Source: Psychrobacter sanguinis
Lineage (GTDB): Bacteria; Pseudomonadota; Gammaproteobacteria; Pseudomonadales; Moraxellaceae
Length of the DNA stretch: 32,179 nucleotides
Reading direction: 5' to 3'
Assembly (NCBI RefSeq): GCF_020736705.1
Contig: NZ_CP085991.1
Span: 1 to 32,179 of the forward strand
In this document: positions 25,134-30,537 of the stretch, in pieces
How positions within the stretch are numbered: the stretch's first letter is position 1
Layout of the letters: every line of letters begins with the position of its first letter
Made by a program: the position numbers and the translations under genes
Notes under the pieces: model-generated
The model's input: the letters and a program-made list of their open reading frames with translations, nothing else
The model's database searches: none
Told to the model about the DNA's origin: nothing

Positions 25134-25266
25134 GTCACTTAGGTTACATAGAGAAGCTACTTGATGGGGTTGAGGTTGAGTGGAAGGAGCTTTGGCAGGT
25201 TACTATCTGGGATAAAAAATTTAATGCTGTTGAAAGAGATAAGCAACCTAGGGTTATAAAATACCA
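25130..25266 (+). pseudogene. hsdS: hsdS, 5' fragment (first 45 codons)
   Basis: The start ATG overlaps the hsdM stop. The fragment (MSHLGYIEKLLDGVEVEWKE, ending QPRVIKY) is cut by the composite element beginning at 25267. Its last nine bases AAAATACCA are the target duplication repeated at 30529-30537. Joined across the insertion it gives a 396-residue specificity subunit. It will translate into the IS end and stop early. Confidence 0.9.
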
Positions 25267-25281
25267 CTCTGCACACGACAA
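25253..25281 (-). promoter_or_regulatory. Possible hybrid promoter reading into hsdS/hsdM antisense
   Basis: On the minus strand TTGTCG in the IS end (25276-25281) is followed after 17 bases by TATAAC (25253-25258), five of six -10 bases. Confidence 0.4.
25258..25266. repeat. Left 9-bp target duplication of the fadL composite element
   Basis: AAAATACCA, repeated at 30529-30537 beyond a different IS. Confidence 0.92.
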
Positions 25282-26458
25282 AAAAATCATCCCCACCCTA
25301 TTTTCATAGGTTTAGGGGGTAAAAAGCTAACTAACTGTCGAAAGACAGTCTTATCATTGTTAAAAAACACCAAGCGAAGGCCTTCAATCAACACATCCAG
25401 GCCAAGCGCAAACAAACTGGCTTGAGGTCGAGCGTTTGCCTTCAACTTGCGTTTTAACGGCTTATCTTTGTCTTTATAAATACCGACATGATAAGCCCAA
25501 CAAAATGCTAAGGCGTTCACTGCAACTAATTTACTGACCCGATCAAGATGGGTTAAGTGGGTATCTTCAAGATTAAAGCCACGGCCCTTTAGACAAGCAA
25601 ATAAAGTCTCAATTTCCCAACGCTTAGCATAGCTTGTCATCGCATCCACTGTTTCTAGTTGATTGGTTGCGACAATCACTAAACCGTAGTCTTTATCACG
25701 CTTGGCAAATACTCGAACCAAACAACCATCGACAGTCAGTATTCGCCCATGTCGATATGTTTCTTGATGGCTAACATGGCGAAATAACTCTTTAATCTGT
25801 ACCAGCTTGCCATGATGATTCTTAACTTTACTGTTCTTCTTAATCCGTATGGCAAAGGGTATGTGATTATTGGTGAGCCAGTTAAACCATTTTTCGCCAA
25901 CAAACTCTCTGTCTGCTACTATCATCTCAAGGTTATCTTTGCCAAATTGTTTGATAAACCGCTCAATAAGTTCACAGCGTTCAAGATGGTTTGTATTACC
26001 TCGCTTATCTAGCATTTGCCAGTATAAGGGGATGGCTATCCCTTTATATACCACCCCTAGCATAAAGATGTTGAGGTTACTTTTACCCCATTTCCAGTTG
26101 GTGCGGTCAATGGTTAAGGTGACTTTGCCTAGTCCAAATAGTCGATATATCATTAAAGCCAGTTGATCGTAGTCTATCCTCGCTTCGGCAAAAAATCGCT
26201 GTAGTCTGCGATAGTGGCTGTCGGTCTTGCCACCCTTAGGAAGGTGTCTTGCTATTTTTTTTAAGATTACTGCTTTGAGCAGTAATCAGGGCTATTATCA
26301 TTAGGCTCAAACAATTGATTCTTGCCTTGTTCATGCTCAGGTTTTGGGTTAAAGTTTCACTAAGTCTGTTAAAGTTTGGCATGGTCTGATTCGTCTTAAA
26401 AATTACTATTATGCCTTTGCTTTAATAGACTTTTTTGTTTTTTTTGTCGTGTGCAGAG
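25267..26458 (-). mobile_element. IS4-family insertion sequence, copy 2 (1192 bp)
   Basis: Nearly identical to 6365-7551, with the same terminal repeats. It lacks its own target duplication because it forms the left end of the composite element. Confidence 0.92.
25287..26380 (-). pseudogene. IS4-family transposase, frameshifted
   Basis: The same transposase as copy 1, but the frame starting at the usual ATG (near 26380) stops early after the A8 run (26255-26262). The long open part (25287-26153, 288 residues) keeps both aspartate motifs and the YAKRWEIETLF...K signature. Relative to copy 1 it keeps the 4-bp stretch (CTTA/TAAG region near 26234) that copy 1 has lost. One A fewer in the A run would give a normal frame reading KKIARHLPKGGKTDSHYRR, so expression would need slippage or frameshifting. 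Confidence 0.8.
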
Positions 26459-26569
26459 TTATAAATATATCAAAGTGTTGCAATTTATTTCTTCTTTAAG
26501 TAGTATTGCTGGTAATCAATTATTTAGTGGTTGAAATGTAACCCAACAATAATTAGTGTCTATCCCTCT

Positions 26570-26611
26570 GTTTTATGATTTCACATTTCGTGAAAAGCCT
26601 AATCATAAAAC
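26570..26611. promoter_or_regulatory. Nested inverted repeat upstream of the FadL gene
   Basis: Outer arms GTTTTATGATT and AATCATAAAAC enclose inner arms TTTCAC and GTGAAA. A direct repeat TTAGTGYCYATCC lies on each side (26553-26565, 26613-26625), followed by TATAAA. It may be an operator region or a leader structure. Confidence 0.45.
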
Positions 26612-26650
26612 CTTAGTGCCCATCCTATAAATGGAATTTTGGAGAAGTTA

Positions 26651-28110: not shown

Positions 28111-28999
28111 TATAGTCATAGCCCTTAAAAACAGTCACACAGCCAAAGAAAATAGAAGAATAACGTATCGATACAATCTATTCCCCAATCTTGACGCTTT
28201 TTCTTAACCCAAGCCCAAGTTTGCTCAATAGGGTTTAAGTCAGGACTATAAGGCGGTAACCATAGAATAGTGTGTCCTGAATCTTCAATGGTTTTTTGAA
28301 TATCAAGGCCCTTATGGAAAGTTGCATTATCCATAACGATCACACTATTAAGGGGAAGTTGTGGTAATAACAGTTGCTGAGCCCAGCTATGGAATACATC
28401 ACTATTAACACTACAGTCGTAAAGACCTACTGCGAATAACTGATTATTGTAAATAGCACCTATAGCATTGGTTTGGTTTTTTAGTTGCCAGTTATGCTCG
28501 CCAAAGCACTTCTCACCTTTTTTGGCATAGCCGTAAGGTCTGTAATCATGTGCCTTGAAGCCACTTTCATCTAAGTAAACGACAGGACAGTTGTCTTTTT
28601 CATGCTGGGCTAACTGCTCAGCGAATAACTGACGTTTTTCTTCATCTGATTTAGGATGATGCAGTGTCTTTTTTTTGAATAATACCAAGTCGCTTCAGTG
28701 CACGACTGATGCTTCTTTGGCTACAGTTAAGACGTCTTGCTCGTTCTATTTGATAAGCATCTGGGTAAAGCTCAACATCTGCTTTAAGCCGATCGCTATC
28801 CACCTTGTAAACAGTATAGACGTAAACTTTACGCTCAATGTTCTTTTTCCAACGCTGAATTGTCGTTGTACTGATTTGATATTCTTCGGCAAGCTCTCGA
28901 TAGCTGTAACCTTCGTCAAGCTTGTCTAATATCATTTGTCTGTAGTCTTTTGAATATGCCATCTTATCAGTGTATCTTATTTATGGGGCTATGACTATA
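28111..28999 (-). mobile_element. IS630-family insertion sequence (about 0.89 kb)
   Basis: Perfect 14-base inverted ends TATAGTCATAGCCC (28111-28124) and its complement (28986-28999), with TA at both edges as expected for the TA target of IS630/Tc1-type elements. It carries a two-frame transposase. Confidence 0.88.
28125..28962 (-). CDS. IS630-family transposase in two frames
   Basis: The upstream frame (28651-28962) encodes 103 residues with the helix-turn-helix part (YSYRELAEEYQISTTTIQRWKK). The downstream frame (28125-28688) encodes the DDE part: D in VVYLDESGF, D in VIVMDNATFHK and E in NPIEQTWAWVKK. The frames meet at a run of eight A and need a +1 shift or slippage. This may be a programmed signal or a simple loss of one base. 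The gene is otherwise complete. Confidence 0.8.
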
Positions 29000-29178
29000 G
29001 TATGAAATATTAACTATTATTAATACAAGTATATACGCTGTATTACACACTTGTAATATAACGACATAGATTTTAGAATATACCGTATTCCTGGCACAGG
29101 ATGGCCAAATATTCAAACTCGTCATAGTTGTCTATGAGAGTAGAAATTTGGGTATTAATTTTTCATGGAGGATTCCAA
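29000..29178. other. Upstream region of the second FadL-like gene
   Basis: AT-rich DNA between the IS630 end and the truncated FadL gene, ending with the ribosome binding site GGAGGA. It probably holds that gene's promoter. No gene is seen. Confidence 0.4.
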
Positions 29179-29345
29179 ATGTCACAAAAGTTCCCTATCT
29201 CTAAGCTTACGCTTGCTCTTTTAACCTTACCCTTAGCTAGTTTATCTCACGCCGCCGGCCTTGACCGCTCAGGCCAAGACACCACTGCCTTTTTTCAAGA
29301 TGGTACCTATGCAGAAGCTGTGTATACCTATGTAGATGCTGATGT
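29179..29345 (+). pseudogene. FadL-like gene, 5' fragment cut by an IS
   Basis: About 55 codons. A signal peptide (MSQKFPISKLTLALL to LSHA) precedes AGLDRSGQDTTAFFQDGTYAE, closely matching the mature start of the neighbouring full FadL protein. The gene breaks off where the IS4-family element begins (29346) and reads a few codons into it. The two genes were probably a tandem pair in the donor chromosome. Confidence 0.88.
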
Positions 29346-30528
29346 CTCTGTACACGACAAAAATGCTCAAAGTCTCAAAGGTCGTGGACTAGGAGACAAA
29401 TAACTTATTAGAACCTCAAACACACGCCGATTGCCAGCAAAGAAATACTCACGCAAACCATCAATCAAAACATCCAAACCAATAGCAAACAAACTTTGCT
29501 GAGGTCGACCATGTTTCTTAAGCTTTCGTCTTTTAGGGTGCTGCTGTACAGTTTTAATCCCAATGCGATATGACCAACAAAATGCTAGCGCACAAACCGC
29601 CACTAACTTACTTACCCGATCCAACTGTGTAAGATGCGTATCTTCAAGATTAAACCCTCGTCCTTTAAAACAAGAAAACAAGGTTTCAATCTCCCAGCGT
29701 CTGCTATAAAGAGCCATAGCATCCGTATGATCTAAATTGTTGGTCGCTATGATGACATAATCGTTGTCAGTATCACGCTTTGCAAATAGACGAACTTTAA
29801 CGCCATATACGGGAACAGCTCTGGCTAACATAAACGTTTCATGAGGGGATAGATGACGTAACAATGTCTTTATTTGTACCAATTTACCCTGATGATTGGC
29901 TACTAGGGTGTTGTGTTTGATGCGAATGCAAAACTTTATTTGCTCTTTATTTAGCCATTGAAACCACTCTTTGCCAACAAACTCTCTATCGGCTAATACA
30001 TACTGTATTTTGTCTGCGCCAAAGGTGTTGATGAACGTTTGTATGAGCTCACATCTCTCATTACTATTGCTGTTACCTTTTTTATCAAGTAGTGTCCAGT
30101 ATAAGGGAATAGCGATTCCTTGATGAACAACGCTGAGCAAAAAGATGTTAATGTTCTTTTTACCCCATTTCCAGTTGGTTCTGTCTATGCTGATGATGAC
30201 TTCGTCTAAGTCAAAGAGTTGATAGATGAATTTGGCTAACTGGTCTTGGTCTATGTCAACTTGTGCAAAGAAGCGTTGTAGCCGTCTGTAATTACTGTTT
30301 GTCCTACCTTTGACAAATCCTCTTGCTATTTGTTTGAGGTTACTACTTTGTACTTGTATTATCGCTAGAGTAATTAAGCCTAAACACGTCAATCTTGCCT
30401 TGTTCATGGTTAGGTTTTGCGATAATATATTTATGAGCTGATTAAGGTTTGGCATAGTGTGGTTCGTAAGAAAAATTACTATTATGCCTTGTCCTTAGTC
30501 AGCTTTTTTGTTTTTGTCGTGTACAGAG
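29346..30528 (-). mobile_element. IS4-family insertion sequence, divergent relative (1183 bp)
   Basis: Inverted ends CTCTGTACACGACAAAAA and complement differ by one base from those of the other two IS4-family copies. The transposase is clearly related but only moderately similar. It forms the right end of the FadL composite element. Confidence 0.9.
29367..30455 (-). CDS. IS4-family transposase (intact, divergent)
   Basis: 362 residues, intact from MPNLNQL to the stop. Catalytic aspartates lie in SIDRTNWKWG and LADREFVGKEW. The Y-(2)-R-(3)-E-(6)-K signature reads YSRRWEIETLFSCFK. The segment SSNLKQIARGFVKGRTNSNYRRL shows what the damaged region of the other two copies should look like. It is the likeliest source of transposase for the composite element. 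Confidence 0.92.
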   Translation of the reverse strand: MPNLNQLINILSQNLTMNKARLTCLGLITLAIIQVQSSNLKQIARGFVKGRTNSNYRRLQRFFAQVDIDQDQLAKFIYQLFDLDEVIISIDRTNWKWGKKNINIFLLSVVHQGIAIPLYWTLLDKKGNSNSNERCELIQTFINTFGADKIQYVLADREFVGKEWFQWLNKEQIKFCIRIKHNTLVANHQGKLVQIKTLLRHLSPHETFMLARAVPVYGVKVRLFAKRDTDNDYVIIATNNLDHTDAMALYSRRWEIETLFSCFKGRGFNLEDTHLTQLDRVSKLVAVCALAFCWSYRIGIKTVQQHPKRRKLKKHGRPQQSLFAIGLDVLIDGLREYFFAGNRRVFEVLISYLSPSPRPLRL

Positions 30529-30537
30529 AAAATACCA
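30529..30537. repeat. Right 9-bp target duplication of the FadL composite element
   Basis: AAAATACCA, identical to 25258-25266. Confidence 0.92.

What the first reader, a model, noticed from the sequence alone, without database searches (positions are those of the whole stretch)
25258..30537. New composite transposon carrying a FadL outer membrane porin, built from two unlike IS4-family elements
AAAATACCA occurs directly outside the left IS and directly outside the right IS, although the two elements are only moderately similar. Removing 25267-30528 and one duplication restores a 396-codon hsdS. So the whole 5.26 kb moved as one unit using the outer end of each IS. The cargo is a fatty-acid type porin gene and the start of a second one, a rare cargo for a composite transposon. 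The left transposase is frameshifted, so the right one may act on both ends.
Basis: partly seen in the sequence, partly recalled or inferred. Interest (0 to 1): 0.75.

Follow-up and report, generated by a model that had tools for sequence, protein, structure and literature searches.

The report
Composite transposon with its chromosomal parent
A 5.3-kb piece of a bacterial chromosome carrying an outer-membrane transport gene jumped onto a small plasmid because two related but different insertion sequences happened to flank it, and an identical parent copy is still in the same genome.

Summary
The finding holds and can be strengthened. The 5262 bp at 25267-30528 interrupt hsdS on a 32,179-bp contig, most likely a circular Psychrobacter plasmid, between exact 9-bp repeats AAAATACCA. 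The same 5262 bp, with no mismatch, lie on the main contig of the same genome (C1:1623855-1629116). There the left IS has its own 9-bp repeat (TTATAAATA); the right IS traces to a single insertion with repeat TGCTGATGT, one flank having been moved by a later inversion between two IS copies. A Psychrobacter piechaudii contig has both sites empty, each with one copy of the 9-mer. So two independent insertions of IS4-family elements (70% identical in DNA, outer ends 17/18 identical) bracketed a FadL-type gene by chance, and the pair moved to the plasmid by its outer ends. Which transposase acted is unknown: the right IS encodes a full-length one, five left-type copies elsewhere do too, and the left IS's frame break is shared by 14 of 20 left-type copies, 13 of which have perfect duplications. 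Hybrid composites (Tn2114) and composites with traced chromosomal origin (Tn6168) are known; this is a new, unusually well documented member.

The parts
25258..25266 (.). left copy of the 9-bp target-site duplication AAAATACCA in hsdS
25267..26458 (-). left IS (L-type, IS4 family, 1192 bp; transposase on - strand); its outer end is the left end of the composite
25287..26153 (-). downstream part of the frame-broken L-type transposase (288 aa from first ATG; open for 332 codons stop to stop; DDE_Tnp_1)
26459..26467 (.). TTATAAATA: relic of the left IS's own target duplication in the chromosome, carried along at the inner junction
26639..28024 (+). complete FadL/OmpP1/TodX-type outer membrane transport gene (fadL1; listed from a TTG, the in-frame ATG at 26651 is the likelier start)
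28113..28997 (-). IS630-family element between the two fadL genes (TA at 28111-28112 and 28998-28999; HTH_Tnp_IS630 and DDE_3 in two frames); absent from the P. piechaudii locus
29179..29345 (+). 5' end of a second fadL gene (fadL2), cut by the right IS; the rest is at C1:1639865 onward in the chromosome
29337..29345 (.). TGCTGATGT: relic of the right IS's own target duplication in fadL2
29346..30528 (-). right IS (R-type, IS4 family, 1183 bp); its outer end is the right end of the composite
29367..30455 (-). full-length 362-aa IS4-family transposase (NF033591, DDE_Tnp_1)
30529..30537 (.). right copy of the target-site duplication AAAATACCA
25130..25266 (+). 5' part of the interrupted hsdS
30538..31591 (+). 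3' part of the interrupted hsdS (Methylase_S); hsdM lies upstream (23547-25133, named from the annotation of colinear plasmids)

Best explanation
This is a natural hybrid composite transposon of recent origin. In the chromosome an L-type IS inserted upstream of fadL1 (duplication TTATAAATA), and an R-type IS inserted in the same orientation inside the neighbouring fadL2 (duplication TGCTGATGT). Their ends are nearly identical (17 of 18 terminal bases), so an IS4-family transposase could pair the L-type outer end with the R-type outer end. It moved everything between them into hsdS on the plasmid, making a new 9-bp duplication, presumably by the cut-and-paste route of IS4-family elements (recalled). 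The filled donor site remains because it survived on a sister chromosome or was repaired from one. Shown: identity, duplications, empty donor sites in a relative, direction chromosome to plasmid. Inferred: the chemistry, the fate of the donor, and which transposase acted. The likely direct effect is one extra fadL1 copy on the plasmid and loss of the plasmid's type I R-M specificity subunit.
For: Donor and plasmid copies are identical over 5262 of 5262 bp, and identity stops 1 and 2 bp outside the ISs. The outer 9-bp repeat exists only at the plasmid copy; the donor flanks are TTATAAATA and AACGGTGAT. The chromosomal left IS has a perfect duplication of its own. The two R-type copies at C1:1623855 and C1:1638682 have reciprocal flanks (TGCTGATGT/AACGGTGAT and the reverse), as expected if two singly inserted copies recombined and inverted the segment between them. 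The P. piechaudii contig L050 has the same fadL1-fadL2 pair with each IS site empty and each 9-mer present once. The two outer ends match at 17 of 18 terminal bases. The plasmid is colinear with pYP14c and pPSYFG1, which carry uninterrupted hsdS at this place in the plasmid map.
Against: The exact hsdS target could not be seen empty in a relative, because this part of hsdS does not align with pYP14c and pPSYFG1; the empty site is shown only by joining the flanks. No read data were available to exclude misassembly, although an assembly error would not create a new 9-bp duplication. No other L/R hybrid pair was found among the 29 full-length copies in this genome, so cross-use of the ends rests on one event.
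Confidence: 0.95

Rival explanations
1. Sub-question within the best explanation: the right-hand IS's full-length transposase alone drove the movement and recognised both kinds of end.
For: It is the only full-length IS4-family transposase inside the composite; five of nine R-type copies are identical to each other, counting the composite's and the donor's, which suggests recent activity; the outer ends match at 17 of 18 positions.
Against: Five L-type copies with a full-length frame exist elsewhere in the genome, one of them on this plasmid at 6365-7551. The frame-broken L-type copies have themselves moved recently (7 identical copies in 7 sites, each with a perfect duplication).
Confidence: 0.45
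2. Sub-question within the best explanation: an L-type transposase acted, either from a full-length copy in trans or made from the broken-frame copies by a frame change during expression (transcriptional slippage or ribosomal frameshifting).
For: The same 288-aa frame occurs in 14 of 20 full-length copies here, in 4 of 5 copies examined from other Psychrobacter genomes and in 3 of 4 copies examined from Acinetobacter and Moraxella plasmids, each time with the downstream frame open for 332 codons. The use of slippage by IS elements is documented (PMC1088944, abstract seen in the listing).
Against: No expression data. Trans-action by full-length copies explains the spread without any frame change. 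Two of the five full-length copies (L024, L025) differ from the other three in a short stretch of the protein, so their activity is uncertain. Sequencing errors in assemblies cannot be ruled out as a contributor.
Confidence: 0.4
3. The plasmid first received an L-type IS in hsdS, and homologous recombination with the chromosomal copy brought in the rest.
For: Identical L-type ISs exist on plasmid and chromosome, and recombination between R-type copies has inverted a chromosomal segment.
Against: It does not explain why the far end stops exactly at the outer end of an R-type IS abutting the second AAAATACCA; the two ISs are only 70% identical, too different for that crossover.
Confidence: 0.02
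4. Assembly artefact: a chromosomal repeat wrongly placed in the plasmid contig.
For: The segment is repeated exactly in the chromosome, and repeats cause misassembly.
Against: The 9-bp duplication at the outer ends cannot come from copying the chromosome, where the flanks differ; both unlike IS ends are joined to hsdS flanks that read as one frame.
Confidence: 0.02

Closest known systems
Tn2114 (blaRTG-5, Acinetobacter baumannii; Bonnin et al. 2012, not read, known here through passages of PMC8438517 and PMC7653874)
   Same: hybrid composite transposon bounded by ends of two different but related ISs
   Different: Tn2114 uses IS3-family ISAba21 and ISAba14; here both ISs are IS4 family with 9-bp duplications and the cargo is a chromosomal fadL gene, not a resistance gene
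Tn6168 (ampC, A. baumannii; passages of PMC11879209)
   Same: composite made by two IS insertions (ISAba1, 9-bp duplications) around a chromosomal gene, with its chromosomal source traced
   Different: two copies of the same IS; the exact donor was proposed as a hypothetical strain, whereas here an identical donor is in the same genome
Tn2006 (ISAba1-flanked blaOXA-23; passages of PMC5343135)
   Same: by recall, ISAba1 is of the IS4 family; after its added 5' tail a published ISAba1 primer (PMC4378888, one passage) has the same first 16 bases as the R-type end here
   Different: ISAba1 at both ends; resistance cargo
Tn5 (passages of PMC9330008) and Tn10 (recalled)
   Same: IS4-family composites, in which one IS copy is defective
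   Different: the flanking ISs are nearly identical there (one base in Tn5), against about 30% difference here, and they lie in inverted rather than direct orientation

Membership tests
composite transposon | two ISs bracketing non-IS DNA | tested here: met
composite transposon | target duplication at the outer ends only, inner flanks unlike | tested here: met
composite transposon | the whole unit found at a second site with different flanks | tested here: met
   5262/5262 bp identical on contig C1, flanks differ
composite transposon | active transposition of the unit in a laboratory assay | not testable with these tools
   no experiment possible
hybrid composite transposon (Tn2114-like) | the two outer ends come from different ISs | tested here: met
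   70% DNA identity between the ISs; a full-length L-type transposase (copy L024) against the R-type one: 216/361, 60% aa identity
IS4 family | family-specific DDE transposase | tested here: met
   NF033591 above cut-off for the R-type transposase and for the full-length L-type copy at 6388-7476; DDE_Tnp_1 for both composite copies
IS4 family | terminal inverted repeats and 9-bp duplications | tested here: met
   perfect 9-bp duplication in 17 of 20 full-length L-type and 4 of 9 full-length R-type copies
FadL/OmpP1/TodX family | Pfam Toluene_X above gathering score | tested here: met
   fadL1 37.6 bits against 29.7; no NCBIfam family and no solved structure matched it by sequence; the open frame of the fadL2 remainder scores 29.1, just below the cut-off
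type I R-M specificity subunit (HsdS) | Methylase_S domain, between hsdM and hsdR | tested here: met
   two Methylase_S stretches in the 3' part; colinear with annotated hsdM-hsdS-hsdR in pYP14c and pPSYFG1

The most novel reading that the evidence does not exclude
The L-type IS is an expression-recoded element: its broken transposase frame is a conserved, functional arrangement found in three genera, and L- and R-type transposases with about 60% identity share ends freely. Mixed pairs of such ISs would then routinely mobilise chromosomal genes. Because the two bracketing ISs are too unlike to recombine, such hybrid composites would be more stable than ordinary ones.
Probability: 0.2. Interest if true: 0.5.

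Novelty: new member of a known kind. Interest (0 to 1): 0.38.

Why it matters
It is an unusually complete record of how a composite transposon is born: empty sites in a relative, two single IS insertions in the donor, and a jump of the pair, all readable from sequence. It also indicates that ISs differing at 30% of positions can cooperate if their terminal bases agree, so a count of mobilisable genes that looks only for pairs of identical ISs would miss cases. The plasmid encodes a MobQ-like relaxase (below the curated cut-off; its relatives are typed mobilizable, MOBQ) and also carries resistance genes, so such a jump puts a chromosomal gene on a plasmid that may be transmissible.

Tried and rejected
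Homologous recombination and misassembly were considered and rejected (see rivals). An older composite already moving around the chromosome was rejected: the two ISs of the chromosomal copy share no outer duplication. The missing duplication of the chromosomal right IS first looked like evidence against single insertion, but is explained by the reciprocal flanks of C1:1638682-1639864. The C-terminal half of an IS605 OrfB-like gene lies beside that copy. The presumed N-terminal piece at the other site gave no Pfam hit, so that half rests on position and reciprocal flanks only. No further copy of the composite was found: of 90 plasmid records with a match, 0 had one place covering at least 80% of an 8680-bp query spanning it, and among the rows listed for 105 genomes of the genus the cargo is full length only at the two places in G000 (not all matches were listed). 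In that search a genome counts as matching through fadL or the IS630 element alone, so 105 of 105 is not a count of fadL. A search for hsdS relatives (7999 scored, 120 listed) gave many S subunits, the best by identity 86% over 80% of the query, but no match across the insertion site was worked out. The IS3-family repeats around the tet(H) region (10365-11641, 17572-18848) show no shared outer duplication, so no second composite is claimed. A promoter scan over the cargo was not informative. Of the papers listed only PMC9330008 was opened (passages); no report of a fadL composite was recognised among the 6 titles, but those 6 papers were not opened.
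Full report
What was checked. AAAATACCA is present exactly twice in the window, immediately outside the two ISs. The left IS is 25267-26458 and the right IS 29346-30528. They align at 769/1106 positions, 70%, and a full-length left-type transposase (copy L024) is 60% identical to the right-type one. The outer ends carry the same 9-mer while the inner flanks do not. A match of this kind has a chance of about 5e-6 per pair. The flanks joined at one repeat read as a 396-codon hsdS.

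The donor. The window is a whole contig (C2, 32,179 bp) of a four-contig genome whose largest contig, C1, has 3,315,063 bp and is taken to be the chromosome. The genus is inferred: named relatives of the cargo and the best plasmid matches are Psychrobacter. The two ends of C2 are adjacent in the related plasmids pYP14c and pPSYFG1, so C2 is most likely a circular plasmid. The whole composite is found again at C1:1623855-1629116, reverse strand, with 0 of 5262 mismatches, and identity stops 1 and 2 bp outside it. There the left IS lies between two copies of TTATAAATA. The right IS has TGCTGATGT inside and AACGGTGAT outside. Another R-type copy at C1:1638682-1639864 has AACGGTGAT and TGCTGATGT, followed by the missing rest of fadL2. 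The simplest account is one R-type insertion in fadL2 and another in an IS605-OrfB-like gene (only one half of that gene was recognised by Pfam), each with its own duplication, and recombination between the two copies, inverting the 13,644 bp between them. Whether the inversion came before or after the jump cannot be told, since it leaves the composite's sequence unchanged.

The state before insertion. The Psychrobacter piechaudii contig (L050) holds fadL1 and fadL2 side by side. The left-IS site reads TTATAAATA once, the right-IS site TGCTGATGT once, and the IS630 site has no element. C1 therefore holds the donor, and the plasmid copy with its new duplication is the product.

The two IS populations. 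The genome has 20 full-length L-type and 9 full-length R-type copies; partial copies were left out of the counts. A perfect 9-bp duplication is present in 17 of 20 and 4 of 9. The exceptions are: the composite's two ISs; the two recombined R-type copies; L-type copies L012 and L027, unexplained; and R-type L035 and L036, which have the same flanks as each other and may be one region present twice, near the two ends of contig C1. The coincidences of flanks that searched for (left of one copy against right of another, and inverted pairs) gave five rows, all explained by the composite, its donor or the inversion.

The frame break. The longest transposase frame from ATG is 288 aa in 14 of 20 L-type copies here, 242 aa in 1 and 363-364 aa in 5. 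Thirteen of the 14 have a perfect duplication; the fourteenth is the composite's own copy. Two of the five full-length copies differ from the other three in a short stretch of the protein. Five copies from other Psychrobacter genomes, one per genome out of 8 full-length rows listed outside G000, gave 4 with the 288-aa frame and 1 with 364 aa. Four copies taken from the plasmid hits (three Acinetobacter baumannii, one Moraxella osloensis) gave 3 and 1. In the 21 copies with the 288-aa frame the downstream frame is open for 332 codons; two of them are annotated as a 996-bp IS4 family transposase gene in RefSeq records. Seven identical copies of this type sit in seven sites with seven different perfect duplications. 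So the broken-frame type is mobile, through full-length copies in trans or through a frame change in expression.

Mechanism. The composite needs one L-type outer end and one R-type outer end in the same transposition complex. These agree at 17 of 18 terminal bases; like ends of the two ISs also agree at 17 of 18, while over 60 bases they match at only 25 (downstream end) and 36 (upstream end) positions without gaps. Recognition of the terminal repeat alone would be enough. The ISs are in direct orientation. An IS pair this unlike should recombine less than an identical pair, so the composite may be more stable; that is inference.

Known relatives. Hybrid composites are not new: Tn2114 joins ISAba21 and ISAba14 (passages of PMC8438517; Bonnin et al. 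2012 itself was not read). Composites of ISAba1 that took a chromosomal gene are known, and the source of Tn6168 was traced to ST32 strains with 9-bp duplications, though its exact donor remained a hypothetical strain (passages of PMC11879209). A published ISAba1 primer contains, as the first 16 bases of the element, the same 16 bases as the R-type end (one passage of PMC4378888). What is added here is an identical donor in the same genome, the empty sites in a relative, the IS4-family pair at 70% identity and the fadL cargo. Searches of the held library for composite transposon with fadL, with Psychrobacter and IS4, with ISAba1 and Psychrobacter, with two different insertion sequences and for hybrid composite transposons showed no report of this element in their listings; most of the listed papers were not opened.

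Verdict. A real, recent hybrid composite transposon with its parent preserved. It is a new member of a known kind and a clear teaching case, with one open question worth a bench test: which of two diverged transposases can pair the unlike ends.

Noticed in passing
5379-6275 and 6365-7551: RTG-family class A beta-lactamase gene (NF000284 above cut-off) with an L-type IS of full-length frame 89 bp upstream of it, in the same orientation and with its own perfect 9-bp duplication ATCTCATTC.
   Followed up: partly
10365-11641 and 17572-18848: Two identical 1277-bp direct repeats that hold an IS3-family transposase gene and bracket tet(H), tetR, a Band-7 protein and an acetyl-esterase-like gene; no shared outer duplication seen.
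   Followed up: partly
L-type IS copies L009-L028, L091-L095, L120-L123: The same 288-aa broken transposase frame in 21 of 29 full-length copies examined, from three genera, including recently moved copies; may be a conserved recoding arrangement.
   Followed up: partly
G000:C1:1623855-1639864: A 13,644-bp chromosomal inversion between two identical R-type IS copies, recognised by reciprocal 9-bp flanks.
   Followed up: yes
G000:C1:17727 onward and C1:3307286-3315063: R-type IS copies L035 and L036 and the partial copies after them repeat in the same order, L035 and L036 with the same flanks, near the two ends of contig C1: a real duplication or an assembly overlap.
   Followed up: no
28113-28997: IS630-family element between fadL1 and fadL2, transposase in two overlapping frames; a 98.5% identical element occurs in another genome of the genus (G039, locus L061).
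   Followed up: partly
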